Shown piece by piece: positions 9,053-31,869 of a stretch of DNA of 64,000 nucleotides. The stretch is from a virus. The notes below the pieces were generated by a model. The model made no database searches. It was given only the letters and a program-made list of their open reading frames with translations, and was not told the origin of the DNA. The stretch's first letter is position 1; each line of letters starts with the position of its first letter. Location: positions 1-64,000 of the IMG/VR virus record IMGVR_UViG_3300043567_001187; one strand, 5' to 3'. The position numbers and the translations under genes are program-made.

Positions 9053-10765
9053 ATGAGTTATGACCCTCCAGTAAAACTATACTATGCAGCAAATAATGAG
9101 TCTACTAGTGAAGACTGTAGATTAGTTCCAGCACCACAAATCAGTATTAGTCCAGAAATATATTATGCAAATAATATAGCAATAGGATATACTTTTAATG
9201 TAACGTTAAATGGTTATGCTACTTCTTTAGACCTTAGAAATCCAGCTCCTAGTGCGATTTTTTCAGATACCCTAGAATCTATTCAAAATATAAAAAATCT
9301 TTTTTTTGTTAATAATGGCACTTTACTTATCACTAACAACGGTAGTGAAATTTTAAAAGGTACTGGAGGCATAGTAAAAAGTATACAGTTTGAAGAATCT
9401 GATAATCAATGGATTAATTATGCTCCGTATACTATAGAACTAGAACTGAACGAATTAAATATTGGAAGCTGTGGTGGTGCCCCATCTTTTGCTTGTGGAA
9501 ATATCCCAGAAGGTATAGTAGAAACACCAGAATTAGTTGATATGACTAAATATAAAATTAAATCTTTTGAAGATAGTTGGAGTATTACTTTAGATGAAAA
9601 TATTTATAGTAGCCATAGCGGGATTGATAATCAGTACTTTAACTTAGAATACAATGTTAGCGCTATAGGCAAACATTACTTTAATGGTCAAAACTTATTA
9701 CCAGCTTGGGAACAAGCTAAAAACTTTTGTCAAGATAGATTAACTAAACAAATCAATAGTTTAACTGATCAATGCTTAGACGGAGAAACAACAGAAGGAT
9801 GTGAAGGCACTACGTTATCTAATGCTTTTATAACTTCTGATGGTAACGGCATACTATCAGAAATAAACCTAGATTCTAGTTATGATATTTTTAATGAAAG
9901 CGCTAGTGTAGAAGCTTCAGAAGCTGAAGGTTCTTTCAAAATTAACTATAAAAGCATAATAAAAAAAAGAGGAAGTGCTGAAAAAGCTATTCATACTTTT
10001 ATAGTAACTAAAAAAATATCAGATGACGAGAACGGAAAAATTATTTCATACAATATTTCAGGCTCAATACAGGGGTTGATCCCTGGAGCTTTAATAAGAA
10101 AAGAAAGTCATTTAAAACTACCATCGTATGGAACAGTAATTGAAAGCACTACTTTCAACGGCGATTCTAAGTATAGTAATGCTTATAGTTATTATATCTC
10201 TAATGTAGGAGATAATAAAACTTTACTAGTAGATTTTGTTAGAGATAAAATAAATAATAATGATATTAATATCACATACGCAGGATTAGGAATATCAGGA
10301 TGTTCTGATCCTACTACAGCTCCAGACAGATGTACATCTTTTTCTTTAACGCATGACAATATCAAAGGGATAATATCTTATGAAGCCGAATATGATGGAT
10401 CTAAAATATTAAGCTTAATAGATAAAATTCCTATAAAAACATATAGCTTATCCATAGAAGAACCATTGCCTATGACGGCAGAATTTATAATCCCTGGAAG
10501 AAGCGGTGGTCCGGTGATACAATTGCTAGATATCGAAACCCCACGCAAATACACATTATCGGTGGAAGGATTAGAGACACCAAACTTGTGCAACACAACG
10601 AATATAAGTTCTTTGGTTTCCGGCGCCTGTAATGGAGACTATGCTATAGATAGCGTTGGTATTCCTAATATAGACTTAGGCACTGTTTTCTTAATAGAAG
10701 AAAAATACAAAAAAGGATTTAATGGTACTTATACTCTTAATAGGACTTATATAGAATATGAGTAA
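9053..10765 (+). CDS. Putative virion/tail protein, first of a tandem paralogous pair
   Basis: 570 residues, beginning 4 bases after the tape-measure stop and therefore in the same transcription unit. I do not recognise a named family. It is clearly paralogous to the next gene. Both have an N-terminal PAP(Q/K)I-I...YAN-AIGY...VTLNG block, a middle KIK-F-DSW block followed by PW-QAKNF-QD-L, an (E/T)SEAEG(S/T)F block, an EAIH-F...KKIS block and an I-G-I(Q/K)GL block. Predominantly beta-type sequence and position right after the tape measure suggest a tail-tip or baseplate component; that role is inferred. Two Cys-rich patches (near residues 140 and 235) are not shared with the paralogue. No strong Shine-Dalgarno sequence is visible before the start. 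Confidence 0.7.
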   Translation: MSYDPPVKLYYAANNESTSEDCRLVPAPQISISPEIYYANNIAIGYTFNVTLNGYATSLDLRNPAPSAIFSDTLESIQNIKNLFFVNNGTLLITNNGSEILKGTGGIVKSIQFEESDNQWINYAPYTIELELNELNIGSCGGAPSFACGNIPEGIVETPELVDMTKYKIKSFEDSWSITLDENIYSSHSGIDNQYFNLEYNVSAIGKHYFNGQNLLPAWEQAKNFCQDRLTKQINSLTDQCLDGETTEGCEGTTLSNAFITSDGNGILSEINLDSSYDIFNESASVEASEAEGSFKINYKSIIKKRGSAEKAIHTFIVTKKISDDENGKIISYNISGSIQGLIPGALIRKESHLKLPSYGTVIESTTFNGDSKYSNAYSYYISNVGDNKTLLVDFVRDKINNNDINITYAGLGISGCSDPTTAPDRCTSFSLTHDNIKGIISYEAEYDGSKILSLIDKIPIKTYSLSIEEPLPMTAEFIIPGRSGGPVIQLLDIETPRKYTLSVEGLETPNLCNTTNISSLVSGACNGDYAIDSVGIPNIDLGTVFLIEEKYKKGFNGTYTLNRTYIEYE

Positions 10766-12368
10766 TATTACTTTTACATATGGTGGTGCAACGATAGCGC
10801 CAGCACCCAAAATTAATATAAAATCAAATATAATATATGCAAATGATAGCGCTATTGGATATGAGCATGAAGTTACTCTTAATGGACAAGCTATCGATAA
10901 AGATGTTTTAACATTTGGTGCAACGATATCTAAAGCAGAAGAAATAAGACAAACTTTATCTAAAAATGGATCAGTATTAATAGTGTCTGGCGATGGATCG
11001 GATTTAATAAAAGCTTTTGGGGGAGTATTAACAGATCTAAAATTTGATTCTGATAATTCATTTAGTAAATTTGCTAATTATTCAGCAACTATTATTTTTA
11101 ATGAGTTAAATATATTAGATGATTCTTTTAGTTGTAATTCCTCTCAGCTGTCTGGATATAGTCAGCTTATAGATATTAATAAATATAAGATCAAAGAATT
11201 TACTGATAGTTGGACATTTAATTTAGATGATGGAATTTATGATTTTGATAACCAAATTAATAATAGTCAATTAAGTGTATCTTATCAAATATTAGCTAAA
11301 GGATTATCCTATTTTACAGAAGATTCGAATATTGTCTTGCCATGGCAGCAGGCTAAAAATTTTGTTCAAGATAAACTATTTACTCAAATAAAAAATTTTC
11401 ATAACAAGAATATTCTCAAATTAGATGCTGATACAGCTTGCGCAGCCTCTAAATCATTAACAGATCTACATTCGGATAATGGTCAATTATACGCCATAAA
11501 CCTATCATATTATGTATATGATGAAACTATTTCTTGTGAAACATCAGAAGCTGAAGGCACATTTTCTGCCACATATAATGCTATACTAAAATTTGATGAT
11601 GATAATTCAGATATTTCCAGTAAAGAGGCTATACATAACTTTACAAAAAAAATTAGTACCAACTATGAAGGATCAAAAGAGATTATATCATTGTCTGTAG
11701 ATGGTACTATTAAAGGATTAAATAGTTCTAATTTATCTACAGATTTAGTATTTGGTGGTTTTTCTTTACCCAAAAACGGCAAACTTTTAAAGGATGGCAA
11801 CAGTTTTACAAAATTAACTAATGCAAATATAGCTAAAAATAAGATTATAAACGCCTCGCAAGAAGATTTTACAGATACTTTTAAAGATATTCTAAATATT
11901 GAAGATATTTTTTCTACCTTAAATTGTTCTGATACAATAATATCTCCTAATGTTTTTAGCTTGACAACAGATCTTTTTTTAGGTATAATAAATTATAGTG
12001 CGCAATATTCTAGCGATAGATTATTAGCCGTTGATAGTGGAAATATAGTAATATATAATACCACAATAGATGTTGAGAAACCCAAACCAATATATGCAGA
12101 ATTACCTATTGTTAATGGAAACTATGTTATACAGGATTTATCTACTACTACTAGTCAAAAAATTAATATTGGCGTGAATGGTAGGTTAAAATATGATCAG
12201 TGTACTGCTCAACCATCGTTACAGAAAATTAAAGGCATTATGGAAGAATTTACTTTTCCCACAGGATTGAACTTTATATTAACAAATAAAAATTTATTAT
12301 ATAATTTTCCCAACCATAGTTTTACTATGAATGTATCATATTTATGTAAGAGTGGGTGTCCAATATGA
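10758..12368 (+). CDS. Putative virion/tail protein, second of the tandem pair
   Basis: 536 residues. The start overlaps the preceding stop by 8 bases (ATGAGTAA), typical of translational coupling. It aligns with the preceding protein along most of its length; shared landmarks include the N-terminal YAN-AIGY-EVTLNG block, the KIKEFTDSW block, LPWQQAKNF and SEAEGTF. The pair most likely arose by tandem duplication, followed by strong divergence. The C-terminal quarters differ most. A structural role in the tail tip or baseplate is inferred from position only; no enzymatic motif is seen. Confidence 0.7.
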   Translation: MSNITFTYGGATIAPAPKINIKSNIIYANDSAIGYEHEVTLNGQAIDKDVLTFGATISKAEEIRQTLSKNGSVLIVSGDGSDLIKAFGGVLTDLKFDSDNSFSKFANYSATIIFNELNILDDSFSCNSSQLSGYSQLIDINKYKIKEFTDSWTFNLDDGIYDFDNQINNSQLSVSYQILAKGLSYFTEDSNIVLPWQQAKNFVQDKLFTQIKNFHNKNILKLDADTACAASKSLTDLHSDNGQLYAINLSYYVYDETISCETSEAEGTFSATYNAILKFDDDNSDISSKEAIHNFTKKISTNYEGSKEIISLSVDGTIKGLNSSNLSTDLVFGGFSLPKNGKLLKDGNSFTKLTNANIAKNKIINASQEDFTDTFKDILNIEDIFSTLNCSDTIISPNVFSLTTDLFLGIINYSAQYSSDRLLAVDSGNIVIYNTTIDVEKPKPIYAELPIVNGNYVIQDLSTTTSQKINIGVNGRLKYDQCTAQPSLQKIKGIMEEFTFPTGLNFILTNKNLLYNFPNHSFTMNVSYLCKSGCPI

Positions 12369-14146
12369 CAACAGTTTTAGAACCAGCAATATCGGGACTG
12401 CCTATATATTTTATGGGAGGTTCTGTAGTATCTTTTAATGCTTCTATAGGTTTTGGCTCTCAGCAAGAAAGCACACTAACAGTAGAACTCATAGAAGACT
12501 GTGAAACACAATGCGGCACACCTCAAACTATTCAAACCTCAGGAATTATAGGAAGTCCGCAATATTTTACTGCTGGAAATTTTACTTTTGGTGGTATAGT
12601 TACTTCGTGGAATAAAACTAAAAATATAAACGGTGAAATATATACTATAAAATTAAACGATCCTAGACAGCTTTTACAAAATGTTACTATTATTACAGAC
12701 AGTATTAGAGGCACTACAAGCCCCACTTCTATCGGCTCTACTAATTATTGGCAGAATGAGACTATATATGGACCTAATTATTATAATGTATTTGCATGGT
12801 ATGAAGATAGGCTAACCATTACTAATGGGGTGGGTAGTAAATGTCCTGCTTTTGGTGACTCTGGAAATGTTGATGGTCAAGGAATGCCATACTCTAGAAT
12901 AAAACATGCTCTGACTCCAAGAATTTTTCCAACAGGTACTTTCTTCACTCCAGTCCGACCAGTTCACGGTCCGTTAGGCGCGTTCCCATACAGTATGTTT
13001 TCCGCTTTAGCATATAGCGGAACTCCTCTAAAGTCTTCTCCTGACAATATCAATACTTATAATTTTGAAGTGGATTTAAATACTTTGCCAAACGCTCCTG
13101 ATTACTATAGGGTGCCTGGACCAAGCACCACATTACTAGAAATGGCACAGGATGTTTGCGATGTAATGGCTCAAGATTTTTATGTTTATATGGAACAAGT
13201 ACCAGTATCCGGACAAGCTCCTAAAAATATTATTAAATTTGGATTAGTAGATTTGACTGCCAACCCTTCTAGTTTTAATACCATATTAACAGCCTTTAGC
13301 GGACAAGCATTGGATTTATCTTTTGGAGAAGAATTTAGAAGTGATATTACACGTAGTATACTTATTGGAGAAAATATACATCAATTAACTTATGTTAATG
13401 AATTTTTACCATTTTTTGGAGAAGACCTAGATCCTATCACTTTAAACATGCGTCCTGTAATAGCTTTTTATTTTGACTATAATGGATTTTGGATAGCAAA
13501 AAATGTCAACGATTTAAATTCTAAATTATATAATCCCTTTTTTGTTAATAATGGATTATATTCTATTCATGAATTAGATATAAGATGTGCGATGGCCTCT
13601 TTTAAAGCTTGGTTTTTTCGTACTTTTACGGGAGAATCCTTAGAAGAGTCTGGGTATTTGGGTACTCCAGGAACATTTAATAGTGCTATTAGAAATCGTT
13701 TCTCTAATTGTGTAATAAATAATCCAGACTGGATAAAAACTAGACTTATAGATTCTGAAGATCAACTCAATATCATACAATCTTCACTGTATAAAAGTGC
13801 TCAAGATTTATTTCAAAATCCTACACAATTTGCTGCTGCTAGTAATAAACCAGATAATTTGATCGATTTAGAAAAAATACATTCGTGGCTAGCAGATTTA
13901 GGCAACACATATTATGGTAAACAATATATAGTTTCAGCACCAAATATATGTTTTAGAAAAATTACAGACGGATCAGTTGTTTTTACCAAAGAACCAACTA
14001 ATGCCGGTGGTTGGGTAGAACCTGGAAGTACAGTATTAGATTTGACGGATCCAGAACTAGAAACATTTAGAACAGAAGATGGACGTATTAAATGTTTTGC
14101 CGTATTTAAAACTGATGGTGAAGTATATAATGCTGGAGTTAATTAA
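12365..14146 (+). CDS. Putative tail/baseplate protein
   Basis: 593 residues from the ATG at 12365, which forms an ATGA junction with the previous stop. An in-frame GTG at 12356 would add MSN and would match the MS- beginnings of the four neighbouring plus-strand genes, so the start is not settled. The N-terminal 120 residues contain an ordered beta-type segment: TLTVELIED, then FTFGGIVTSWNKTKN and YTIKLNDPRQLL. Its shape (a short beta domain ending in a LxDP motif) resembles N-terminal domains of phage tail hub proteins. I offer that as a weak family impression, not an identification. The rest has no recognised motif. Position between the duplicated pair and two more long virion genes supports a tail structural role. 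Confidence 0.6.
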   Translation: MTTVLEPAISGLPIYFMGGSVVSFNASIGFGSQQESTLTVELIEDCETQCGTPQTIQTSGIIGSPQYFTAGNFTFGGIVTSWNKTKNINGEIYTIKLNDPRQLLQNVTIITDSIRGTTSPTSIGSTNYWQNETIYGPNYYNVFAWYEDRLTITNGVGSKCPAFGDSGNVDGQGMPYSRIKHALTPRIFPTGTFFTPVRPVHGPLGAFPYSMFSALAYSGTPLKSSPDNINTYNFEVDLNTLPNAPDYYRVPGPSTTLLEMAQDVCDVMAQDFYVYMEQVPVSGQAPKNIIKFGLVDLTANPSSFNTILTAFSGQALDLSFGEEFRSDITRSILIGENIHQLTYVNEFLPFFGEDLDPITLNMRPVIAFYFDYNGFWIAKNVNDLNSKLYNPFFVNNGLYSIHELDIRCAMASFKAWFFRTFTGESLEESGYLGTPGTFNSAIRNRFSNCVINNPDWIKTRLIDSEDQLNIIQSSLYKSAQDLFQNPTQFAAASNKPDNLIDLEKIHSWLADLGNTYYGKQYIVSAPNICFRKITDGSVVFTKEPTNAGGWVEPGSTVLDLTDPELETFRTEDGRIKCFAVFKTDGEVYNAGVN

Positions 14147-14149
14147 ATT

Positions 14150-16096
14150 ATGTCTAGAATATTAGATTGTGGAAATCTAGATATATCAAATATTTCAGAA
14201 GAAATCATAACCATTAATCAATCAGCATGGGTTGCTGCTGACGTTGATGAAAAAATATATTTATATTCAACAAACAATACTGTTTTTGGATTTATGGTAA
14301 TAAAATTTGCTTCTCCATGTTTAGCTACACTTTGTGACGATACAACAAGTAGAGGAATTCAATTCGCAGTAAGTACACAAGAAATGGCATTGCGCGATTT
14401 AGAAAATTTTAGAGATTTTGCTATAAATAACACGTCATATTACTCTCAACAAATGAATAATGCTCTTGCAAATTTTGGATTACCACCATCTCATGCTAGT
14501 CATTTTAATCCACAATGGGGTATTCAAAGGCCAATTCCATCATTTAATGATAAAATCAGCAAAAACTTAGCTTCTCAACCCACAAAAGGTATAGACGCTC
14601 ACAATCTTAATGATTTTGGTTTTCAATCAGTAGCAGTTAGACCTCTAGGTGCTGTTATTCCATTAAGAGATAATTTTGACACTTATGGACCATGGACATC
14701 TAATAATTTTTGGACTTCTACGGGTGGAATAAGTGTTACTAGTGATAATAGTTTTTCTCCTTGGACTTTCGGATCTATATATACATTAAATAACGCAGGA
14801 GAAAATATAGTTGAATTTAGTAATAGAGGATTAGTGAAGGCTGAGACTGGTCTCGTTACGCTTGTAGGAATTCCATCTTCTGAACACAATTTGCCAAAAC
14901 TAGGGGAAAAATTATCAGGATTTGGACCTAATTTAACTTCAGTAAACTTTAGCTTAAGCACTAAAGGGGCAACTACAACCTATGAATTTAAAACATACAC
15001 TCCTAAATTTGGTAAACTTACAAAATTATTTTATGATAGATATAAAGAATTAAACAAGGCAAGAAATAAGCAACTTAAACTACTTAAAGATTTTCAAAGT
15101 AAACAAAATAAATTATATAGAAAAATTGCAGCACGAAGAATTAGAGAAAAATTAGACTCAGTTAAACCCGATGCCTTTAGCAATAGTATGCAAAGAGTAA
15201 TTATTGGATATATGGATGATTGGTATAATTTAGGTGATGGTTCAAAATCTCAAAAAACAGTTGTTGGTATGGCTACATTAGCAAAAACTAGTTTGGAAAC
15301 TTTTGCTGATGAAAACATGAATAAAAGCATAATGAGCTTAGATGGTATCTTTAGTCCGGTATCAAATTATAATTCAGCTTTACCTAGAGTAGTAGAGCCA
15401 GAAGACCCAACAATTATTAATACTTTGCCTGCTATGCCACCAGGATTTAGCGATTTTGAAAATCCAAAAACAATTAATAGTAAAAGTTATAATCCTATAA
15501 CTATTGGAGATACAGAAGGACCAGCAAAATTTCATGATGGTGAAGCTATGGGTCATTCTATAGATATTATAGGTAGAAATTCTATACCAAAAAATGGTCT
15601 AATTAATAGTTTTTATGGGTTGTCTCAAGACGATAAAGAAAAAAAATATGGAGAAGGATCATATAACTTTATAGCTTTAAAAGGCCCATTAATGCTACAT
15701 TCATGGGGTTATGATCTGGAGGGTAATCCTGTACCTGGAGACGGAACAACTTTTGAAAGTAATTGGTTACAAAAGCCAAAATCTTGGCCAGTAGCTCCGA
15801 TAGATCTTAGGTTTGATAAACAAAGAGGTATGTGGGTATGTCCTCAGCCTTTTAGAATTGTTACTGGTACCTTATTGAGTCCACTACTTCCTGGACAAGA
15901 AGCTTTTGCTATATTAGAAGATGATTTTTCTAAAAGAGTTGGAGTAGTAGATAAAATAGGTCGTTCATGGAAAGCTGGTACTCGTTGTTATCTTTATTTT
16001 GATGCTTATATTAATGTGTATATCGTATTAGAAGGTCATGAACCAGAAGAGCCAGATGATGAAACTAATTGTTGTGATGAATCTGATGTGGACTAA
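14150..16096 (+). CDS. Putative virion structural protein
   Basis: 648 residues, starting 3 bases after the previous stop. No family was recognised. Visible parts are an N-terminal beta-type region, a strongly basic helical stretch (about residues 290-345, rich in Lys/Arg/Leu, probable coiled coil), a Pro/Asn-rich linker around 420-460, and a conserved-looking C-terminal domain. That domain has GPLMLHSWGYD, PIDLRFDKQRGMWVCP, then a small beta domain and a very acidic tail with adjacent Cys residues (ETNCCDESD). The layout of a rod-like middle and compact ends fits a tail fibre, tail spike base or baseplate protein. That is an inference from composition and place in the tail gene train. Confidence 0.6.
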   Translation: MSRILDCGNLDISNISEEIITINQSAWVAADVDEKIYLYSTNNTVFGFMVIKFASPCLATLCDDTTSRGIQFAVSTQEMALRDLENFRDFAINNTSYYSQQMNNALANFGLPPSHASHFNPQWGIQRPIPSFNDKISKNLASQPTKGIDAHNLNDFGFQSVAVRPLGAVIPLRDNFDTYGPWTSNNFWTSTGGISVTSDNSFSPWTFGSIYTLNNAGENIVEFSNRGLVKAETGLVTLVGIPSSEHNLPKLGEKLSGFGPNLTSVNFSLSTKGATTTYEFKTYTPKFGKLTKLFYDRYKELNKARNKQLKLLKDFQSKQNKLYRKIAARRIREKLDSVKPDAFSNSMQRVIIGYMDDWYNLGDGSKSQKTVVGMATLAKTSLETFADENMNKSIMSLDGIFSPVSNYNSALPRVVEPEDPTIINTLPAMPPGFSDFENPKTINSKSYNPITIGDTEGPAKFHDGEAMGHSIDIIGRNSIPKNGLINSFYGLSQDDKEKKYGEGSYNFIALKGPLMLHSWGYDLEGNPVPGDGTTFESNWLQKPKSWPVAPIDLRFDKQRGMWVCPQPFRIVTGTLLSPLLPGQEAFAILEDDFSKRVGVVDKIGRSWKAGTRCYLYFDAYINVYIVLEGHEPEEPDDETNCCDESDVD

Positions 16097-16112: not shown

Positions 16113-18839
16113 ATGAGCTGCACACCAACACCAACTATATCTAATACTCAAACATCTACTCCAACCAAGACTCCCACATCTAGCGTTACGGCATCTAAAA
16201 CAGGAACTCCATTAGAAAGTGCAACTCGTACACCTAGTATCACACAAAGTAAAACTAAAACTTTAAGCAAAAGTAATACTAAAACTAGAACCGCCACTGT
16301 CAGCAGAAGTCCCGACATATCGCCAACGCCATCGTTTTCAATTTCAAGAAGTTCTACTCTTACAAGAACTATTTCAAAAAGCCTAGGAACTACCAAAACC
16401 CCGTCCCCATGCTCAAGTCCTACTCCTTCAATATCTTTTAGTAAAACTAATACCGCTACGCCTACTCGTACAACCACAAATACTGCTAGTAAAACCCCAA
16501 CACTATCAGCAACTAAGACACGTACTAATACAGCAACTAATACAAAAACTAATACAAGTACATCTAGTTTAACTAAAACAAAAACCAATACTAGTACAAT
16601 TACATCAACTAATACAGCGACTAGCTCATCTACTCCTACTATAACAGCAACTAATAGCCCTACAAATACTATGACTGCAAGTATAACTCCTACTTATACG
16701 CCTACTAATACCACTACTAATACAGTTAGTATTTCTATGACGAATACCTCTACTAGTACTGTCACACGTAGTATTAGTAATACGACTACTCAAACACCAA
16801 CTAGTACTAATACATCAACGGTTAGTCAATCAGTTAGTGGTACTCCTAATGCTTCTCATACATCAACACCAACCAATACGGCTACAACTACAAGAACAAC
16901 GACTAATACTGCGACACCAACAAAAACATTGACAAATACTGCAACCTCTACTACTACAGCAAGTAGCAGCTTAACTGCAACTATCACAGCTAGTATAACT
17001 CCAACAAATACCGCCACCAATACTCTGACACCAACTAATACGTCTACCAACACCCTAACCGCCACTAATACTATAACACCATCTCCAACCTATTCCCCAA
17101 CTAATACCATAACATCTACACCAACATCAACTATTACAGCAACTCAAACCAAAACAACTACTAATACTCCAACTTTTACCAGAACATCAAGCATAAGTAT
17201 GACACCCACAGATACACCCACAACAACACCAACCACAACACGTACCAATACCACAACAAACACTATAACTGGTACTCAAACTAAAACACCCACCACAACC
17301 AGAACACCAACTAAAACCAGCACAATGACACCATCTGCTACTATAGTATGTGAAATAGAGACAATAACAGATCCTGTTGATACAACTATTACTATAGATA
17401 GACATACAAGAATAGTTGCTGATAATGGACCAATTAATATAGACTTAATAAATTATACATCTTCTATATGTCCATTAAATCCATATCCGTTACCACATGT
17501 TACATTAATTCTTGATGGATCTAGTTCAGAATATAATACAGTATACCAAGTTTTGCCTGGAAATCAGCCAGTAAATATAAGAATAGCTAAACAAGGATCT
17601 GGCACATGGGTATTTACTGATTCTAATAGTAATTGGACACATAGAGCTAGTGGTACTCCACATTTACTATTCGAAGAAGGAACTATTATTTTAGCCGGAA
17701 ATGCTCTGGGCGGTTCGGCTACCGGTAGTATAATAGGCAGACAAAATGCTACTATGCCATATCTTGGTAGTGCTGATTTTAATGGACCAGTGGCTCTTTT
17801 AATAGCTCGACAAGCAAGAGAACTTACCGAGGATGGAGATTTAATACCAGAAGAAAACAGAGAACCATCAACTTTTTCTAGAGTCTTAGAGATTCCATCA
17901 GGAGCAATAAATTCTGATATTATTCTAGGAGGTAGTTCCTATGGTAATCAAAACGGAGAATTTGGTACTTTTGATAGTAATGCAGCATTTAGAATTGGAT
18001 CTAGTGGCATAACACTAGCATCAGATGCTAATGGATATGTAAGATTTATAACAGCATATTGGCAAAAAGTAGATGGCAACCCAGATCCTGAAATAGATGT
18101 CAATATTGGTACACAAACAATGACAGGAGATGTCTGGCTAGATTATGCATTATTCCCATCATCTATTAATAATTTAAATATAAGAACTGGTGGTCTGGTT
18201 TTTGCTAATGGAAACTATAGATTTGGCGGCAACCCATTAAGCAATCCTCCAATATTAACCATAGGTAGTGAATATTCTTCAGCAAGAATAGAGATGGTAT
18301 CAAATATTCAAGCTTTTAATAGTACAACATTTATAGGAAACGATAATCTTATCACAGGAGGAACATTTAGATTATTTAATAACGGAACAGACCCGACCGT
18401 AACTGTACAGGCTGGTAGTCACACAATTTCATCAGACTTAATATTTGATACAACACCAACATTTGATGTATCGGATGGCTGTCAGATAACTATTGGTGGA
18501 ACTATACAACCTACCAGTGCCGGATTAATAAAAAATGGCTTGGGAACTCTTATACTACAAGAAGCTGTCGGATATAGCGGCACTACGAATATTATAGATG
18601 GATCTTTAACAGTAAACTCTATAATAAGCGGACCATCTATAGTTGATTCGGTAGTATTTACATCTGGTACTTTAACTATAAACTTTAATAGTGAGCCATC
18701 AATCAATGATACTTTCCAGATATTGCTTGGTTCTACAGCACAAACTTATGTCACTGAAGATATCAGCCTCGTTGGGATAACAGGAACTTATATCCCAGCA
18801 TATGACGATACTACTTCTACTTTAACTATTAATGAATGA
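16113..18839 (+). CDS. Mucin-like Thr/Ser-rich virion protein with autotransporter-type beta repeat
   Basis: 908 residues in two halves. Residues 1 to about 410 are almost only Thr, Ser, Asn, Ala, Pro and Lys, with Thr at every second position over long runs (TNTATNTLTPTNTSTNT is typical). From about 411 a beta-rich domain follows. Near residues 801-840 it carries GLIKNGLGTLIL...GYSGTTNIIDGSLTVNS, which matches the pattern of the passenger-associated transport repeat of autotransporter adhesins (a right-handed beta-helix element). A Shine-Dalgarno-like ATAGGG lies 8 bases before the start. As last gene of the tail module it is probably an exposed fibre or adhesin. No signal peptide is seen, so secretion by the autotransporter route is unlikely. 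The Thr/Ser face is an obvious acceptor for O-glycosylation, and glycosyltransferase genes lie directly downstream on the other strand. Confidence 0.7.
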   Translation: MSCTPTPTISNTQTSTPTKTPTSSVTASKTGTPLESATRTPSITQSKTKTLSKSNTKTRTATVSRSPDISPTPSFSISRSSTLTRTISKSLGTTKTPSPCSSPTPSISFSKTNTATPTRTTTNTASKTPTLSATKTRTNTATNTKTNTSTSSLTKTKTNTSTITSTNTATSSSTPTITATNSPTNTMTASITPTYTPTNTTTNTVSISMTNTSTSTVTRSISNTTTQTPTSTNTSTVSQSVSGTPNASHTSTPTNTATTTRTTTNTATPTKTLTNTATSTTTASSSLTATITASITPTNTATNTLTPTNTSTNTLTATNTITPSPTYSPTNTITSTPTSTITATQTKTTTNTPTFTRTSSISMTPTDTPTTTPTTTRTNTTTNTITGTQTKTPTTTRTPTKTSTMTPSATIVCEIETITDPVDTTITIDRHTRIVADNGPINIDLINYTSSICPLNPYPLPHVTLILDGSSSEYNTVYQVLPGNQPVNIRIAKQGSGTWVFTDSNSNWTHRASGTPHLLFEEGTIILAGNALGGSATGSIIGRQNATMPYLGSADFNGPVALLIARQARELTEDGDLIPEENREPSTFSRVLEIPSGAINSDIILGGSSYGNQNGEFGTFDSNAAFRIGSSGITLASDANGYVRFITAYWQKVDGNPDPEIDVNIGTQTMTGDVWLDYALFPSSINNLNIRTGGLVFANGNYRFGGNPLSNPPILTIGSEYSSARIEMVSNIQAFNSTTFIGNDNLITGGTFRLFNNGTDPTVTVQAGSHTISSDLIFDTTPTFDVSDGCQITIGGTIQPTSAGLIKNGLGTLILQEAVGYSGTTNIIDGSLTVNSIISGPSIVDSVVFTSGTLTINFNSEPSINDTFQILLGSTAQTYVTEDISLVGITGTYIPAYDDTTSTLTINE
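16119..17345 (+). repeat. Low-complexity repeat coding the Thr/Ser tract
   Basis: About 1.2 kb of degenerate short repeats dominated by ACN codons, with frequent ACTAATAC and ACAACN units. Codons for Thr vary (ACT, ACA, ACC, ACG), so the protein pattern is kept better than the DNA pattern. This argues for selection on the Thr-X dipeptide repeat rather than recent DNA slippage. It also produces long spurious open frames on the other strand. Confidence 0.85.
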
Positions 18840-20435
18840 TCATTGTTTATAAACAATAAACTGATCAGTAGATAAAATATCTAATCCTGTATTATCTAAC
18901 ATCCATAATCCATCTTTATATGAATTAATTAATGGTTTACCATTTATATTAAAAGATGTATTTAATAGTACGCCTATTCCAGATAGTTTTTCAAATTCTG
19001 TAAGTAAATCATATATAAAAGAATTTTGGTCTTTTGTAACCGTTTGTAATCTTGCTGTTCCATCAATGTGGGTGATAGATACTAATTGTTCCTTATATTC
19101 TTCCCTAACATTAGCATAATAACTCATAAATCTACTTTCACCATTAAATTCAAAATACTTATTAGCATCTTCCAATTTAACTACAGGAGCAAATGGTCTG
19201 AACCACTCTCTTCTTTTAACCTTTTGATTAAGAATATCTTTCATGTTCGGTATGGCAGGATTGCATAGTATACTCCTATTGCCAAGTGCTCGCGGTCCGT
19301 GCTCACAATCACCTTGTATTAATCCTACTATATTTCCATTATTTAAAATTTCAGCCATTTTTTCATGACTATATACTTCTGACCATTTATTTTCTATTAA
19401 TTCATATATACAATAAGGATCCAAAACTGGCAACCCTCCATATGTTACATCAACTTGATATCTGGGTCTTTCATAGTCTAATAACATACCCAACGCCAGC
19501 CCCGAATCATTTGAGTTTGGCGCTATAAATATTGGTCTATTAAATAAATCCTTAACTCTTGTGTTACAAACAACATTTAGAGCGCAGCCTCCGGTTAAAC
19601 ATATAGGTAGATGACTATACTCTATTGAATTTAATATTGGTGTAATAATTTCTAAAAATATTTCTTCAAATACTTTCTGAGATGTTGCAGCTATATCTAA
19701 AGCCAAGTCTCCCATTAGTCTATTATTCGTATCAAATACTATTCCAATTTTTGATCCTATTATTGTATTAATTTTTTCTAAATAATCTATACCATTGGGT
19801 TTACTGAAATAATAATCTTTAAAGTATCTTACCCAGTCTTCTCTTACTGATCCGTATCCACACAAACCCATTAGTTTTCCAGCGTATACTAAATTACCGA
19901 TAGATAATTCTGATTCAAACTTAATTTCATTAATAAAATGTCCAAAGGACATATAAGCAAAACCTAAATCTATATCTACGTTCTGTATATTTGTAACACT
20001 GTTTTGTCTATTCCCATAAAATATATTAAAAAATCCATCGCTACCACCCCCATCATAACTAATAATAATAGCTTCATCAAAAGGAGATTGATAAAATGTT
20101 CCGGCAGCATGGGCCTTATGGTGTAAACAAAAATGTTTATTTTTAGCCGATATAAGATCTTCAAATTTTATATGATCACTTCCATATATCACATCGGTAT
20201 TCGCATATAATAGATTATCAAAAAGTAAACTATTATTAAATTCCTTTTTAATATACTGTAAAATTTGATCTAGAATATAGAAAGAGTTACGACACAACAG
20301 ATACTGTGTTAAGCCATAATTTTTTTTATTAATAAATCTTTCTATTTCTATAATTTTATACCTATTATTATCTCTAAAGGCGATACCACCATTATGAGAT
20401 CCGTATATAGCTAAATTATTTTCATGATAGTACAT
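18840..20435 (-). CDS. NodU/CmcH-family carbamoyltransferase
   Basis: 531 residues. The family transfers a carbamoyl group from carbamoyl phosphate to a sugar or antibiotic hydroxyl, via a carbamoyl-adenylate. Diagnostic blocks are visible: SYDGGGSDGF in the N-terminal actin-like domain, LTGGCALN for nucleotide binding, and GDCEHGPRALGNRSIL plus REWFRPFAPVV in the C-terminal domain. Near-full family length. I start at the ATG at 20435 because the longer frame needs a TTG at 20453 inside the upstream gene. It is the last gene of a glycosyltransferase group, so a glycan on the virion or host surface is the probable acceptor (inference). Confidence 0.88.
   Translation of the reverse strand: MYYHENNLAIYGSHNGGIAFRDNNRYKIIEIERFINKKNYGLTQYLLCRNSFYILDQILQYIKKEFNNSLLFDNLLYANTDVIYGSDHIKFEDLISAKNKHFCLHHKAHAAGTFYQSPFDEAIIISYDGGGSDGFFNIFYGNRQNSVTNIQNVDIDLGFAYMSFGHFINEIKFESELSIGNLVYAGKLMGLCGYGSVREDWVRYFKDYYFSKPNGIDYLEKINTIIGSKIGIVFDTNNRLMGDLALDIAATSQKVFEEIFLEIITPILNSIEYSHLPICLTGGCALNVVCNTRVKDLFNRPIFIAPNSNDSGLALGMLLDYERPRYQVDVTYGGLPVLDPYCIYELIENKWSEVYSHEKMAEILNNGNIVGLIQGDCEHGPRALGNRSILCNPAIPNMKDILNQKVKRREWFRPFAPVVKLEDANKYFEFNGESRFMSYYANVREEYKEQLVSITHIDGTARLQTVTKDQNSFIYDLLTEFEKLSGIGVLLNTSFNINGKPLINSYKDGLWMLDNTGLDILSTDQFIVYKQ
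18842..18857. other. 16-base perfect palindrome at the convergent gene ends
   Basis: ATTGTTTATAAACAAT reads the same on both strands and lies within the last codons of the minus-strand carbamoyltransferase, 2 bases beyond the stop of the plus-strand mucin-like gene. It is flanked by TGATCA on both sides. With no GC pairs and no adjoining U-run it would be a poor intrinsic terminator, but its place at the only convergent junction in the window is notable. Confidence 0.4.
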
Positions 20436-20439
20436 AATA

Positions 20440-21702
20440 TTATATATTTCCAATTATAGGTTCAGCCCAGCCCTTGGATATGCTATGAGGCCATACTACC
20501 CAGCTAGTTGGTCTAATTTTAGTTTCAAAACTTCTCCATACTTTACAGTATCCGTCGGGATCATTTTTCATACGAGCTATTTCATATTGATCCGCGTCCT
20601 CTCTGAACATATCATTACCATCCTTATCCTTAAAAGCTACAGCCCAGAAATCATAATCGTCTTCTGGCACCTGGTCATATCCTATATCTATACAGTGTTT
20701 AAAAATATAAATTAGTTGTTCTTGAAACTCATTATCTGGAATATTCATATTTTCTAATTTTGGAGGTATATGATCCAATAAATCTCTAGTAACCCCTCTG
20801 CTACTAAAATGCATACCAGCGTATTTTTCATAGTCCTTAAGAGATCTAACAGTACCAAAATCATAAACTCCAAAATCAATATCTTTTTCATGATTATCCA
20901 TTTGAAATAATTTTCTATTTCTTAAATGACAACTATTATTCCTAGCGCCCCAATCGTTAATATCGTCCCATTGCTTACTTCTTCCTCTTCTAGTATATTC
21001 ATGCCAACAGATAACTTTATTAGGATAAAATATATCATACCCATAAGTAAAAGCACGAACAGCAATATTTATTTCTTCTCCATGAAAATAATAATAAGGA
21101 TCATGCTTAACTTCTTTACAGAATTGTCCTAAAGTAAATGCAAAATGAGCACTATAAAATCTACCCAGTAATGGTTTACTAATATCTTCTATTTCTGGAT
21201 TAAAATTAGTAGGTAAAAAAAATACAGCTCCTTCGGGTATATATCTATCAAAAGTCATTTTCCATGGTTCTTGTACTCTTTCAGGTGGATCATTATCAGG
21301 ATTAAAGCTGGGTATATATCCTGTAATTAGTGGTTTTGAATAACCATCTTTTTGTAGCTTTTTTAACATTTTTATTAATATAACATCCCAGTCTTTAACA
21401 AATCTATGATGACTGTCTAGTTGTAGAGTATAGGTTTCGCCGGCATATAGACTCTGAATAAGGTTTCTCGCCCAGCATACACCCTGGCTATCTCTATAAT
21501 CTATATCTAGAATTTTAAATCTAGAATCATTGATATATTCATTTAAGTTGTCCCAGCCATCATCCGGATGATGCTGCCAAGCTATGCCAAATCTTAAATT
21601 TTTAGGATATTTAGCATTATGCAACATATCTTGTAACGTTAGTAATAACTGAGGATCTCTATATGACGCAATTTGTATAAATATAGTGTTTTTATTATTC
21701 AT
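20440..21702 (-). CDS. GlcNAc-transferase-type glycosyltransferase (polypeptide GlcNAc-transferase family)
   Basis: 420 residues. The N-terminal block IFIQIASYRDPQLLLTL is the signature of the family that includes the Skp1 hydroxyproline GlcNAc-transferase of Dictyostelium (Pfam GlcNAc). It is followed by FGIAWQHHP, the ARN block (VCWARNLIQSLY) and the metal-binding QLDSHHRF. Further down come a conserved YFHGEEI and a CWHEYTR His block. Known members add GlcNAc from UDP-GlcNAc to protein hydroxyls. The protein is expected to be cytosolic, as no signal or membrane segment is seen. Adjacent to YibB-like, FkbM and carbamoyltransferase genes and tail to tail with the Thr/Ser-rich virion gene, so the acceptor could be that protein. 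Acceptor and donor are inference. Confidence 0.82.
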   Translation of the reverse strand: MNNKNTIFIQIASYRDPQLLLTLQDMLHNAKYPKNLRFGIAWQHHPDDGWDNLNEYINDSRFKILDIDYRDSQGVCWARNLIQSLYAGETYTLQLDSHHRFVKDWDVILIKMLKKLQKDGYSKPLITGYIPSFNPDNDPPERVQEPWKMTFDRYIPEGAVFFLPTNFNPEIEDISKPLLGRFYSAHFAFTLGQFCKEVKHDPYYYFHGEEINIAVRAFTYGYDIFYPNKVICWHEYTRRGRSKQWDDINDWGARNNSCHLRNRKLFQMDNHEKDIDFGVYDFGTVRSLKDYEKYAGMHFSSRGVTRDLLDHIPPKLENMNIPDNEFQEQLIYIFKHCIDIGYDQVPEDDYDFWAVAFKDKDGNDMFREDADQYEIARMKNDPDGYCKVWRSFETKIRPTSWVVWPHSISKGWAEPIIGNI

Positions 21703-21705
21703 AAG

Positions 21706-22575
21706 TTATTTCTGTAAAAAAATTTCATAAAAATATTTTATTGATTCTTGATTAACATGATGTGGCCAAGGCTGCCAATCATCAAACTCTAGAGTATGAT
21801 ACAAATCTTTTTCATTAAAATATAAACAAGACATTATAGATTCCTCCATAAATAAGTCATTTTCTTTTGCAAGAAGTAATTTTAGTAAAATATCGTCAAA
21901 CTTTTGCAAAAAACTTAGGTAGTTTTCAGTAATACCACCAAAAAAACCACCAACAATATGTCTACTATTATCAAAATTTATATAGTAATCTTGAGGTATA
22001 GTCACCTCGGTTCCGAAAGACTTATTATTTTTAGAAATAAGAATAATCTTACCTGTATTGGCTAACCTATTTAAGTATAATAGATATTCTGGCGTAAACA
22101 TGCTGCTATTGTACCAATTTCTTCCGTGTTCATTTGTTTCTAATTCGTACATATATTGTGCTGGAAATAAACCTCCATGAGACAATCCAGCATCAAACCA
22201 ATAAACATAACGATATTGCTCTATATCTTTTATGAGACTGATCCAAAAAAATTTATTATACTGTATTTCAAAACACCGATGGTCGGTCTTTTGTTTCTCT
22301 ATGTTTTTTTTACTCTGTATTAGATCATAATATTTAGTATCTTTAAGATCAAATATTTTAAATTCTAGTAAATTTTTATCAATTTTATTTTCTTCATAGA
22401 AAAATTTTTCTAACTCTGTTAATTCTTCTGAAGAAGTAAAACAAATAATTTTTGTTGGTTGTAAATTTAATATGTTCAATAAACTGAATTTATAATGCCA
22501 GTCTCTACTAGGTCTACCACCAAATTCTGAACCATATAAATTAGAATATATACAAGTAATAATTAATGTAGACAT
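21706..22575 (-). CDS. YibB/HtrL-like putative glycosyltransferase
   Basis: 289 residues. The central YVYWFDAGLSHGG and the later IVGGFFGG with MEESIMS correspond to the middle domain of the next-upstream fusion protein (FWIDGGI, RGGFFGG, TEESIFT). The two are diverged relatives. That layout, with a W/F-(I/F)-D-x-G acidic motif, resembles the HtrL/YibB family linked to surface polysaccharide synthesis. The enzymatic role is inferred, and donor and acceptor are unknown. Spacing to both neighbours is 3 bases, so the genes are co-transcribed. Confidence 0.6.
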   Translation of the reverse strand: MSTLIITCIYSNLYGSEFGGRPSRDWHYKFSLLNILNLQPTKIICFTSSEELTELEKFFYEENKIDKNLLEFKIFDLKDTKYYDLIQSKKNIEKQKTDHRCFEIQYNKFFWISLIKDIEQYRYVYWFDAGLSHGGLFPAQYMYELETNEHGRNWYNSSMFTPEYLLYLNRLANTGKIILISKNNKSFGTEVTIPQDYYINFDNSRHIVGGFFGGITENYLSFLQKFDDILLKLLLAKENDLFMEESIMSCLYFNEKDLYHTLEFDDWQPWPHHVNQESIKYFYEIFLQK

Positions 22576-22578
22576 AAA

Positions 22579-24930
22579 TTAATTTTCTTTTCTTTCGTCT
22601 TTACCATAATGATGCACCCTATTGTGTGTTATAGGACTCGCTAGAAGTATAGCTGGATGTATTTTATTTTCTACTGTTAGAGTATACATATGACTCATCC
22701 AGGTTTGTTCAAACGGATTAGCCCATTTGGTATCCAAAAAACATTTCTGGTTACCTTCCTGATCTATAATATGCGGCCAGTTGCTATAGTAAATTTCTCC
22801 TTCTACATAAGGAATATTGTTTATACTTTTAATTTTATCAAATTTAGTTAATGGTCTCTTAGAAACTTTACCGAAATAACTAATTCTTTTTTCTTCTGGT
22901 ACATTATGCCAACTCCACTGTTCTCCATTATGGCCATAAAATTCACTGAAACTAAATTTTAAAAAGTCATAGGTTTCATTTTTCATTATCTTGATAACCG
23001 TAGATAATAAATTATTAATATTTTTTCTTAATCCAAAAGAACAATATCCATTAAAATCCAATAACATATCATCTTCAAAGAAAACCATATACTCTGAACC
23101 TAGATTATCAAAATGTTCTGCTGCCCATTGTCTGGCTCCACAAACACCCATATTACCATTTCTTATATGCTCTATAAAGCTATACTTATTTACAATACTA
23201 TTATATCTATCTGTAGTTGTAGTATTTGTAGAATTATTGATTAACACTAATCCTGTTTTCTTAATAAAATCTTTATCAAACTCTTCAAAACTATCAAGAA
23301 CCATTTGTAATTGTTCAGGAGAATTAAACGTATTAATATAAACTACTATATCATTATTTTTATGTTTTTTTCTGTTATTTTTTTTATCTATTTTATTTAG
23401 TTGTACATTATTATTTTTAAGATTTTCAAAAAAAGTAGATATTAATCCATCAGCATTAATCATAGAATATTGATAAGTATCCGGATCAATGTATGTCATG
23501 ATAGTAAAGATACTCTCTTCTGTTCCCATAAAGCCACGAGAAAGAGTATCATTTAGCAAATGATAGTATGTATCATTAGCTTTTGATATATCGTCTATAT
23601 GCCCACCAAAAAATCCTCCGCGGGCGACTCTGGTTAAATTTTCTCCACATATCTGATTCATTTCTTCTATTTGAAATCCATGAACCTCTGTATTGGTATT
23701 ATATGGAAAACATAAAAAAAGCATATTATTAATAATGTGTGGTATTTTTTCTAAAACTTTATCATGACTAAAATATCCTGGATGAACAGTATTAGTTATT
23801 CCTCCATCTATCCAAAACATATATTCTGTATTGAATGGATTAAAACACTTAGCGTTATGGAGCATAAACATTTTGCTCATAACCATAGGATTATACCATT
23901 CCATCTCAGCCTGGGCACTATTTTTTAACCATCCCACCTGATCATACCATGACGGATTGGTTCTTATATTTTGTACTTGGTCAAAAAATGGGAAAAAGCT
24001 ACTATTAAAATCTTCCTTAGTTTGATGATATACTACGGTGTTATGTTTTGATCTGTATTTCCAAACTATATGTTCATTATCTGGATCTATAAATACTATG
24101 AGTGGAATGTCTGTTAAGTTTTGTAGTAGTTCTTCGAATTTACATAAATAATGAGTAAAGTCACGCCGCCACTCTTCAGTTAATTCGTTTCTTTTTAAGT
24201 CCCAAATCCCTGTCACTAACGTAAGTTTAGGACTAGTAATTATTTTTTGTACAGATTTGATTTTTTCCCAATAATCCGTTCTAACAGCATCTAAATTTTG
24301 ACCAGATATAGTATATATATAGTTATTTTTTTCTAATAAACCGATGACCTCTTTCTTTTCTTCTTCAGACAAATTAATATATTCTATTCTAATAACTCTA
24401 GGATTATATTTTTTTATATCAATATTTTTTAATATGACATAATCATGACCCTCAGCATCTATAGATAATACATCAAAATTTTTAATATTGTGTTTAGTAA
24501 ATAAGCTCTCAGGAGTTAAACACGGTACTTCTATTAATCTTCCGTATTTATTTACTGTTTGTCTATCACCACTAGAAGCTAATCCGTTTTTGGGAGGAAA
24601 TACCGCAGACATTCCTCCAAAACATTCATGTATTTTCCCTTCATCTATTGCTTTTTGATCTATGGTAATCATTCGAATGACACCATCGTAATCTGATACC
24701 GCAACATTTTCGCATATGCTTGGCGTATTATCGTATAGTTTTTTTAATTTATTAAATTGTTCTAATATAGGCTCAACAAATAATCCATTCCATCCATATA
24801 AAGAAATATATCCTCTAGTCTCATCGAATGAAACCCCATCCATAGCTCCTATTATACAAATAAATATATCATTATCATATTTTCCAATATGATGTAGAGC
24901 TATATCATATATATTATCTTCTGTATGCAT
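22579..24930 (-). CDS. Three-domain fusion: FkbM methyltransferase, YibB-like domain, GT-A glycosyltransferase
   Basis: 783 residues. Residues about 1-230 form an FkbM-type SAM methyltransferase: IGAMDG near 27-32, FVEP near 51-54, DVLSIDAEGHD and a final RIEY block. Residues about 235-520 form a YibB/HtrL-like domain: LVTGIWDL at its start, TEYMFWIDGGI, RGGFFGG, TEESIF. Residues about 527-783 are a GT-A fold glycosyltransferase with VVYINTFNSPEQL at the start, GNMGVCGARQWA and the metal-binding FFEDDM. Three activities that act on a sugar chain are thus joined in one chain. This suggests assembly of a methylated oligosaccharide. Start at 24930 directly follows the upstream stop (TAAATG). Confidence 0.8.
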   Translation of the reverse strand: MHTEDNIYDIALHHIGKYDNDIFICIIGAMDGVSFDETRGYISLYGWNGLFVEPILEQFNKLKKLYDNTPSICENVAVSDYDGVIRMITIDQKAIDEGKIHECFGGMSAVFPPKNGLASSGDRQTVNKYGRLIEVPCLTPESLFTKHNIKNFDVLSIDAEGHDYVILKNIDIKKYNPRVIRIEYINLSEEEKKEVIGLLEKNNYIYTISGQNLDAVRTDYWEKIKSVQKIITSPKLTLVTGIWDLKRNELTEEWRRDFTHYLCKFEELLQNLTDIPLIVFIDPDNEHIVWKYRSKHNTVVYHQTKEDFNSSFFPFFDQVQNIRTNPSWYDQVGWLKNSAQAEMEWYNPMVMSKMFMLHNAKCFNPFNTEYMFWIDGGITNTVHPGYFSHDKVLEKIPHIINNMLFLCFPYNTNTEVHGFQIEEMNQICGENLTRVARGGFFGGHIDDISKANDTYYHLLNDTLSRGFMGTEESIFTIMTYIDPDTYQYSMINADGLISTFFENLKNNNVQLNKIDKKNNRKKHKNNDIVVYINTFNSPEQLQMVLDSFEEFDKDFIKKTGLVLINNSTNTTTTDRYNSIVNKYSFIEHIRNGNMGVCGARQWAAEHFDNLGSEYMVFFEDDMLLDFNGYCSFGLRKNINNLLSTVIKIMKNETYDFLKFSFSEFYGHNGEQWSWHNVPEEKRISYFGKVSKRPLTKFDKIKSINNIPYVEGEIYYSNWPHIIDQEGNQKCFLDTKWANPFEQTWMSHMYTLTVENKIHPAILLASPITHNRVHHYGKDERKEN

Positions 24931-28015: not shown

Positions 28016-28367
28016 TATAATTAACCATTCTGTATTGTGGTTTGGTTGACTTATCGTATATAATTAGATTATAATTATAGTCAATATCCGATCTATTAAA
28101 ATTTTGCATATCATGAATATATAACCAGCTACCTTTATGATTAGTAGCATAACTGTCTTTATCAAAAAATACTATAGTACCAGTAAAAAACTTAGCATAA
28201 AAAGTTGGTAAAAGACTATATTCGGTATTTGTTGGAAACATTATATCTGTGAATATAACAAAGTCATCATACTTATTATTGTCGTACAGATAATGTTTTA
28301 ATTGTTCTATAATATTATCTGCGGGAATTTGCATAGAGTGATAATAAAACGCTAATTTGTTAGTCAT
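27993..28367 (-). CDS. Hypothetical protein in nucleotidyltransferase gene group
   Basis: 124 residues with no recognised family. The sequence alternates beta strands and helices with a hydrophobic start (KLAFYYHSMQIPADNIIEQL), as in a small Rossmann-like domain, and ends in a Gln-rich tail. It overlaps the upstream LicC-like gene by 4 bases (ATGA), so it is translated together with it. It could be the remnant or partner of a surface-sugar enzyme; nothing in the sequence proves this. Confidence 0.5.
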   Translation of the reverse strand: MTNKLAFYYHSMQIPADNIIEQLKHYLYDNNKYDDFVIFTDIMFPTNTEYSLLPTFYAKFFTGTIVFFDKDSYATNHKGSWLYIHDMQNFNRSDIDYNYNLIIYDKSTKPQYRMVNYNELQQSL

Positions 28368-31366: not shown

Positions 31367-31376
31367 TGATGATAAA

Positions 31377-31414
31377 CAAGACCCCTGGTATCTAAAAAGA
31401 CACCAGGGATCTTG
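31377..31414 (-). terminator. Strong hairpin after ssb
   Basis: Arms 31377-31392 and 31399-31414 pair over 16 bases (two G-U pairs) around a 6-base T-rich loop; TTTATC follows on the minus strand. It lies 17 bases after the ssb stop. The short U-run makes termination likely but perhaps partial. Confidence 0.75.
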
Positions 31415-31430
31415 CAAAACTCCTTTAATG

Positions 31431-31841: not shown

Positions 31842-31869
31842 ATAATAGATCTGAGCGGTAGGGTGTCAA
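31842..31869 (-). promoter_or_regulatory. Sigma70-like promoter of ssb
   Basis: On the minus strand TTGACA (31869-31864), 16 bases, then TATTAT (31847-31842). The -35 box overlaps the stop codon of the polymerase C-terminal gene. The 5' leader would be about 30 bases and contains the ssb ribosome-binding site. Preceding bases AAAAC are shared with the candidate at 59748. Confidence 0.65.

What the first reader, a model, noticed from the sequence alone, without database searches (positions are those of the whole stretch)
16113..24930. Mucin-like virion protein beside a phage protein-glycosylation cassette
Seen: a 908-residue protein, half of it Thr at every second residue, converges with genes for a polypeptide GlcNAc-transferase-type enzyme, a carbamoyltransferase, a YibB-like protein and an FkbM/YibB/GT fusion. 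Known: the GlcNAc-transferase family modifies protein hydroxyls. Inference: the phage may build a methylated, carbamoylated glycan on its own tail fibre, a decorated mucin-like virion. This could shield the particle, bind mucus or alter host attachment.
Basis: partly seen in the sequence, partly recalled or inferred. Interest (0 to 1): 0.75.

Follow-up and report, generated by a model that had tools for sequence, protein, structure and literature searches.

The report
Phage mucin-like tail protein with glycosylator
A tailed phage carries, side by side, a tail protein with about 400 residues in which every second one is threonine or serine and an enzyme shaped like those that start sugar chains on animal mucins; the two travel together in many unrelated phages and in a few bacteria, so phages probably make mucin-like, sugar-coated tails.

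Summary
The 908-residue protein ends the tail-gene module. From residue 3 to 408, Ser/Thr fills 97.5% of alternate positions without losing register. It converges on genes for a carbamoyltransferase, a PF11397 glycosyltransferase, a YibB-like protein and an FkbM-YibB-GT2 fusion. The proposed enzyme-substrate link survives controls. Strict S/T alternation lies near the glycosyltransferase in 22 of 34 dereplicated phage loci and in 0 of 120 random viral loci, in about 16 unrelated carrier proteins, often as the adjacent gene. In one tail lineage tract and enzyme are both present (18) or both absent (11), as a single split. The enzyme's model (pLDDT 94) matches solved polypeptide GalNAc-transferases as its top 27 hits. 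Two Bacteroidota chromosomes carry the same pairing, one with a T9SS-secreted carrier. Most likely it is a dedicated mucin-type O-glycosylation system of phage tails. GlcNAc-T plus YibB-GT2 is the conserved core; carbamoylation and methylation are variable additions. The sugar, occupancy and benefit are unknown. Exceptions: some phage and most bacterial PF11397 genes have no such tract nearby, and some tracts occur without the enzyme.

The parts
16113..18839 (+). Mucin-like protein, 908 aa, last gene of the plus-strand tail module; proposed acceptor
   Evidence: 72%-identical 966-aa homologue in L002
16119..17336 (+). S/T-alternating tract, residues 3-408; S/T at 97.5% of alternate positions
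17349..18836 (+). C-terminal region, residues 413-908; probably a beta-helix (PATR autotransporter-type repeat near 18525-18614, Pfam E 2.9e-4, below cut-off; NCBIfam TIGR02601 E 0.003)
   Evidence: 77% identical in L002; AF2 model poor, pLDDT 44
18840..20453 (-). NodU/TobZ-type O-carbamoyltransferase, 537 aa; variable decorating enzyme
   Evidence: PDB relatives 7xb6, 3ven TobZ; 4/34 relatives
20440..21702 (-). PF11397 (GT60-like) polypeptide N-acetylhexosaminyltransferase, 420 aa; proposed initiating enzyme
   Evidence: E 4.7e-68; AF2 pLDDT 94.3; top 27 PDB folds are polypeptide GalNAc-transferases
21409..21417 (-). Invariant D96-S97-H98 (DxH motif) of the transferase
   Evidence: invariant in 36 sequences
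21706..22575 (-). 289-aa YibB-like protein, possible second transferase
   Evidence: 7/34 relatives; weak relation to the YibB domain
22579..24930 (-). FkbM methyltransferase - HtrL_YibB - GT2-like fusion, 783 aa. YibB-GT2 is the conserved core of the cassette; FkbM is a variable N-terminal addition
475..9048 (+). Tail length tape measure protein, 2857 aa; shows that the plus-strand genes are a tail module
   Evidence: PHROG 25241 tail length tape measure E 1.9e-9
9053..16096 (+). Four conserved tail-module genes (570, 536, 596, 648 aa) leading into the mucin-like gene; in L314 and L322 the Thr tract is part of the 648-aa protein's homologue

Best explanation
A dedicated mucin-type O-glycosylation system for a phage tail protein. 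SHOWN: the S/T-alternating tail-module protein, the enzyme families, the predicted fold of the transferase, and their non-random linkage. INFERRED: in the infected cell, before assembly, the PF11397 enzyme transfers an N-acetylhexosamine (probably GlcNAc from UDP-GlcNAc) to hydroxyls of the alternating Thr/Ser residues. The YibB-GT2 protein, and here perhaps the 289-aa protein, extend the chain. The FkbM and carbamoyltransferase activities cap or decorate it, and this decorating part is swapped between phages. The product is a tail appendage with a densely sugared, extended stalk carrying a probably beta-helical C-terminal region. The alternation is probably kept because spacing by two residues gives a high density of acceptors and keeps the chain extended. 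The benefit (shielding, reach, stability, attachment) is open.
For: (1) Tract under protein-level selection: register kept over about 400 residues, mixed codons, even-length indels, 'x' positions free to change. (2) Linkage: strict S/T alternation in 22/34 dereplicated enzyme loci against 0/120 random viral loci; Thr-rich ORF in 25/34 against 4/120 (Fisher p about 2e-17), adjacent gene in 11, about 16 unrelated carrier families. Whole records: Thr-x pattern in 33/37 enzyme-bearing against 2/33 random records. (3) Tail lineage A2: 18 loci with both, 11 with neither; one clean split, so one event; the 11 also lack YibB-GT2. Lineage A1: 16 with both. (4) Fold: AF2 pLDDT 94; top 27 PDB matches are all polypeptide GalNAc-transferases. 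(5) Family knowledge: CAZy GT60 TcOGNT1 makes GlcNAc-alpha-Thr on T. cruzi mucins (PMC9472816, PMC8724618). (6) Cellular pairing: Jiulongibacter sediminis has transferase, carbamoyltransferase and FkbM-YibB protein beside an S/T-alternating protein; a Saprospiraceae MAG has transferase and YibB-GT2 beside an S/T-alternating protein with a T9SS sorting domain.
Against: No biochemical or mass-spectrometric evidence. PF11397 genes without a tract exist: a set of phages with tandem copies (L048, L049, L058, L039) and most of the 80 cellular loci, 25 of them in T6SS clusters. Tracts without the enzyme exist: 40 of 50 Thr-tract viral contigs lack it, many of them fragments; in lineage A1 six Thr-rich rows have no complete enzyme. 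Fold similarity is modest (TM about 0.5, 13% identity), and no solved structure is found by sequence. Virion localisation is inferred from gene order and fusions only.
Confidence: 0.77

Rival explanations
1. The cassette modifies host surface glycans (LPS or capsule) to block superinfection or alter receptors; the Thr protein is an unrelated tail protein that lies nearby because both sit in a variable tail/cargo region.
For: GT, carbamoyltransferase and FkbM genes are common in polysaccharide clusters (general knowledge), and phage glycosyltransferases are known to modify host serotype (cited in PMC12619734).
Against: Enzyme and tract are present or absent together in lineage A2, occur with about 16 unrelated carriers, and are paired in two bacterial chromosomes. 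No membrane or serotype-conversion partner was identified. The fold is closest to polypeptide transferases. Of the cellular PF11397 loci, 25 lie in T6SS clusters and at least 4 beside peptide exporters.
Confidence: 0.1
2. The tract is a real but unglycosylated stalk: an extended T-x-T linker or one-faced beta-strand, or low-complexity sequence spread by recombination; the enzyme modifies another virion or host protein.
For: Thr tracts without PF11397 exist, some as poly-Thr runs (L331, L352). Thr-Pro linkers are common in secreted proteins (general knowledge).
Against: It does not explain the linkage or the shared absence. Recent DNA-level expansion is excluded here by codon diversity and the absence of repeats longer than 13 bp.
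Confidence: 0.11
3. The enzymes glycosylate phage DNA (hypermodified bases).
For: Phage glycosyltransferases that modify DNA are well known (cited in PMC12619734). A conserved nucleotidyltransferase/GT group at 28364-31417 lies nearby and is kept in relatives without the cassette.
Against: The fold matches of the PF11397 enzyme are polypeptide transferases. The cassette varies independently of the conserved 28-31 kb group.
Confidence: 0.02

Closest known systems
Trypanosoma cruzi mucin O-glycosylation (CAZy GT60 TcOGNT1)
   Same: GT60-type enzyme initiating O-linked sugar on Thr of Thr-rich mucins, extended by further transferases (PMC9472816, PMC8724618)
   Different: Eukaryotic Golgi, GPI-anchored mucins; here a phage enzyme, a tail protein as acceptor, and YibB-GT2, FkbM and carbamoyl partners. 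Sugar not shown.
Animal polypeptide GalNAc-transferases (GT27)
   Same: Closest solved folds; DxH motif; role of starting mucin glycans
   Different: 13% identity, TM about 0.5; no lectin domain identified; donor sugar unknown
Mycobacteriophage virion glycosylation (Freeman et al. 2023, cited in PMC12619734)
   Same: A phage with glycans on its own virion proteins
   Different: There glycans lie on C-termini of capsid and tail-tube subunits; here a dedicated mucin-like tract and a GT60/GT27-like initiator
Bacteroidota general O-glycosylation (own knowledge)
   Same: O-linked sugar on Ser/Thr of exported proteins
   Different: A short sequon and a transfer machinery at the membrane; here a long alternating tract with its own linked transferase
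Phage Nol-like carbamoyltransferases (PHROG 1601)
   Same: The carbamoyltransferase here is a member (E 1.4e-123)
   Different: Here it is linked to a tract protein and to PF11397

Membership tests
PF11397 / GT60-like GlcNAc-transferase | Match to the family profile above its curated cut-off | tested here: met
   E 4.7e-68, 230.6 bits against cut-off 21
PF11397 / GT60-like GlcNAc-transferase | GT-A fold with conserved metal/nucleotide motif | tested here: met
   D96-S-H98 invariant in 36 sequences; AF2 pLDDT 94 and GT-A type matches
PF11397 / GT60-like GlcNAc-transferase | Transfers alpha-GlcNAc to hydroxyls of a polypeptide | not testable with these tools
   needs an enzyme assay
GT27 polypeptide GalNAc-transferase | Fold of the catalytic domain | tested here: met
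   top 27 PDB matches are GT27 enzymes, best E 1.9e-10
GT27 polypeptide GalNAc-transferase | Sequence similarity to the family | tested here: not met
   no PDB chain found by profile search even at E 10; filed as similar, not as a member
Mucin-like protein | Long Ser/Thr/Pro-rich tract of low sequence conservation with kept composition | tested here: met
   S/T at 97.5% of alternate positions; non-S/T residues 30% identical against L002
Mucin-like protein | Dense O-glycosylation | not testable with these tools
   needs glycoproteomics
Virion (tail) protein | Encoded in the tail module, or fused to a tail protein in relatives | tested here: met
   last gene after the tape measure and four tail-module genes; tract inside the 648-aa tail protein's homologue in L314 and L322
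Virion (tail) protein | Found in purified particles | not testable with these tools
   uncultured phage
NodU/TobZ carbamoyltransferase | Both Carbam_trans domains | tested here: met
   PF02543 and PF16861; TobZ, GdmN relatives in the PDB
HtrL_YibB | Profile match: fusion protein, residues 236-486 | tested here: met
   E 3.4e-10, above cut-off
HtrL_YibB | Profile match: 289-aa protein | tested here: not met
   no Pfam or NCBIfam match; only weak BLAST relation

The most novel reading that the evidence does not exclude
A widespread prokaryotic and phage mucin-type O-glycosylation system: a GT60/GT27-like initiator and a YibB-GT2 elongator, with exchangeable capping enzymes, act on a genetically linked acceptor whose signature is strict Ser/Thr alternation. 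Phages use it to build mucin-like tails and Bacteroidota to coat secreted surface proteins. Related PF11397 enzymes in T6SS and peptide-export clusters would be further branches of protein glycosylation.
Probability: 0.55. Interest if true: 0.88.

Novelty: new variant of a known kind. Interest (0 to 1): 0.78.

Why it matters
Mucin-type O-glycosylation is regarded as a eukaryotic process (general knowledge), and the known phage virion glycosylation that I found concerns other targets. A linked enzyme-substrate pair recurring on about 16 unrelated carriers would give phages a general way to build sugar-coated bottle-brush tails, predict acceptors from sequence alone (S/T every second residue), supply compact bacterial-type mucin-glycosylating enzymes, and offer a testable function for the unexplained YibB family. 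It also gives a testable pair in a named, sequenced strain (Jiulongibacter sediminis JN14-9).

Tried and rejected
No near DNA relative of the region among deposited phages, and no relative of the C-terminal region there. AF2 of the C-terminal region failed (pLDDT 44, two sequences); the PATR match is below its cut-off, so 'beta-helix' is tentative. PDB sequence search for the transferase and the 596-aa tail protein gave nothing useful. The idea that FkbM is the conserved terminal gene, read from whole-protein BLAST, was rejected when domains were searched apart: YibB-GT2 is conserved, FkbM is not. Thr content alone (T60) was replaced by alternation, because it misses Ser-rich tracts (L402) and accepts poly-Thr runs (L331, L352). 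Neighbours of Thr tracts without PF11397 were pooled to look for a substitute enzyme: GT25, GT2 and TOD1/MUCI70 families appear once each, nothing recurrent. Cultured phages with PF11397 (XacN1, RAS14) were checked: only short Thr-Pro stretches in a very large protein 6-10 kb away (in XacN1 next to baseplate-wedge genes), weak support. Literature searches found no account of PF11397 with Thr-rich phage proteins in the open-access library; preprints and subscription papers were not covered.

Full report
1. What is there. The window is the first 64,000 bases of a 94,485-base virus record. On the plus strand a tail module runs from a tape measure protein (475-9048; PHROG match) through four tail-module genes to ORF 16113-18839 of 908 aa. 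Residues 3-408 of this protein form a tract in which Ser or Thr fills 97.5% of every second position and 16.7% of the others, and Pro occurs only at the others. The register never slips over about 400 residues. All four Thr codons are used and the longest exact DNA repeat in the tract is 13 bp, so this is not recent slippage. Against a 72%-identical homologue (L002) the 'x' residues have mostly changed, S/T mostly stayed S/T, and apart from one 1-residue gap at the N-terminus all tract indels are even (2, 4, 16, 4, 12), which keeps the alternation. The C-terminal 496 residues carry a weak PATR (autotransporter beta-helix) match; the structure prediction was poor.

2. The neighbouring enzymes. 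Tail to tail with it lie a NodU/TobZ-type carbamoyltransferase, a PF11397 glycosyltransferase (E 4.7e-68), a 289-aa YibB-like protein, and a fusion of FkbM methyltransferase, HtrL_YibB and a GT2-like domain.

3. Is the link between tract and enzyme more than chance? A scan of 2.9 million viral contigs with the enzyme gave 62 loci, 34 after dereplication by enzyme identity (under 85%). Within 10 kb, 25/34 have an ORF with at least 30% Thr in 60 residues, 11 of them the adjacent gene; the carriers fall into about 16 families that share no detectable sequence outside the tract, plus four that are nearly all tract. Among 120 loci drawn by an arbitrary 15-mer only 4 pass, and none reaches 35%. With the stricter measure, S/T alternation of at least 0.9 over 40 residues, the counts are 22/34 against 0/120. 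The enzyme loci are on average longer than the random ones (about 18 kb against 9 kb), which cannot account for a contrast of this size. On whole records, a 7x Thr-x pattern occurs in 33/37 enzyme-bearing records against 2/33 random ones. In the reverse direction, 10 of 50 Thr-tract contigs carry PF11397, against 1/33 random contigs: weaker (p about 0.04) and depressed by short contigs. So the enzyme predicts the tract much better than the tract predicts the enzyme.

4. Same lineage, with and without. To remove the confound that both may simply sit in tail regions, two tail proteins were used as anchors. In lineage A2 (a 1047-aa protein), 18 loci have enzyme and tract and 11 have neither; the 11 also lack YibB-GT2. 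The tree shows one clean split, so this is one evolutionary event, not 29. In lineage A1 (the window's own 596-aa tail protein) there are 16 with both, 18 with neither (two of them, L316 and L336, are truncated contigs identical in the anchor protein to positives), 6 with a Thr-rich tract but no complete enzyme, and 2 with the enzyme elsewhere in the record but no tract in the locus. Of the six, the three identical rows L330/L331/L338 have poly-Thr rather than alternating tracts, and the record of L323 contains a PF11397 fragment.

5. What the enzyme looks like. With 36 sequences AF2 gives pLDDT 94.3. The top 27 Foldseek matches in the PDB are all polypeptide GalNAc-transferases, the enzymes that start mucin glycans in animals and Toxoplasma (TM about 0.5, 13% identity). 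Invariant residues include D96-S97-H98, G208-E209-E210, R216 and H234. From general knowledge these resemble the DxH motif, the GGE region and the second metal-binding His of GT27; I did not align them residue by residue. GT60, the family to which I would assign PF11397 (own knowledge for the Pfam link), includes Gnt1 and T. cruzi TcOGNT1; the latter makes GlcNAc-alpha-Thr on parasite mucins (PMC9472816, PMC8724618, PMC6939170).

6. Organisation of the cassette. Domain-level searches show that YibB (24/34) and GT2 (23/34) accompany the transferase, while FkbM (3/34), the carbamoyltransferase (4/34) and the 289-aa protein (7/34) come and go. A constant initiator and elongator with exchangeable finishing enzymes is what a diversifying glycan system would look like.

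7. Outside phages. The genome scan found cellular relatives. The Bacteroidota strain Jiulongibacter sediminis JN14-9 has the transferase, carbamoyltransferase and FkbM-YibB protein in a row, and the next gene, divergently transcribed, encodes an S/T-alternating protein; a Saprospiraceae MAG has the transferase and YibB-GT2 beside an S/T-alternating protein that ends in a T9SS sorting domain (E 1.2e-7). A further close homologue (L479) has no tract in the short stretch held, and close homologues are rare in the two orders sampled. Most other cellular PF11397 genes are more distant and have no tract: 25 of 80 loci contain TssF of type VI secretion, and at least 4 have a C39-peptidase-type ABC exporter. 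These contexts point to protein or peptide substrates, but that is inference.

8. Conclusion. The most economical reading is that the tract is the acceptor and PF11397 the initiator of a mucin-type O-glycosylation system on a phage tail protein (0.77). Shown: sequence, families, predicted fold, linkage. Inferred: activity, sugar, order of steps, virion location. Not addressed: benefit. I found no description of this pairing in the open-access library searched.

Noticed in passing
L415, L416, L433, L459, L467, L473 and others (25 of 80 cellular loci): PF11397 transferases of Burkholderiaceae and Enterobacterales lie in type VI secretion clusters (TssF, TssG, ImpA_N confirmed by Pfam in L459), which suggests glycosylation of a T6SS component or a T6SS-delivered transferase.
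   Followed up: partly
L411, L417, L423, L448, L483: Bacteroidota PF11397 genes sit beside C39-peptidase ABC exporters (L417, L448 by Pfam) or an ABC-transporter ATPase (L483), possibly a system of glycosylated exported peptides.
   Followed up: partly
L481:1501-3271: A PF11397 transferase overlaps a 2OG-Fe(II) oxygenase gene and is followed by a small 89-aa protein; reminiscent of the hydroxyproline-directed GT60 pathway on Skp1, so a candidate hydroxylation/glycosylation pair.
   Followed up: partly
L407:7963-11242: Jiulongibacter sediminis has two PF11397 genes flanking the S/T-alternating gene, the second shorter (306 aa) and divergent.
   Followed up: no
window 28364-31417: A nucleotidyltransferase (weakly GlmU-like), a 244-aa gene and a GT4-type transferase are conserved in relatives that lack the mucin cassette, so they belong to another sugar function.
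   Followed up: partly
L048, L049, L058, L039: Phages with tandem pairs of PF11397 genes and no Ser/Thr-alternating tract in the locus; their acceptor may differ.
   Followed up: partly
G159:C1:39120-39239 (record of L323): PF11397 fragment with a 49-aa open frame in a phage that keeps a Thr-x tract: possible decay of the enzyme.
   Followed up: no
window 31869-36202: DNA polymerase is encoded in separate pieces (34337-36202 and 31869-33479, plus a 231-aa exonuclease-subunit match at 33479-34171).
   Followed up: no
window 51930-53066: A Laminin_G_3 domain protein matching virion structural families; a homologous domain is fused to the Thr tract in L007.
   Followed up: partly
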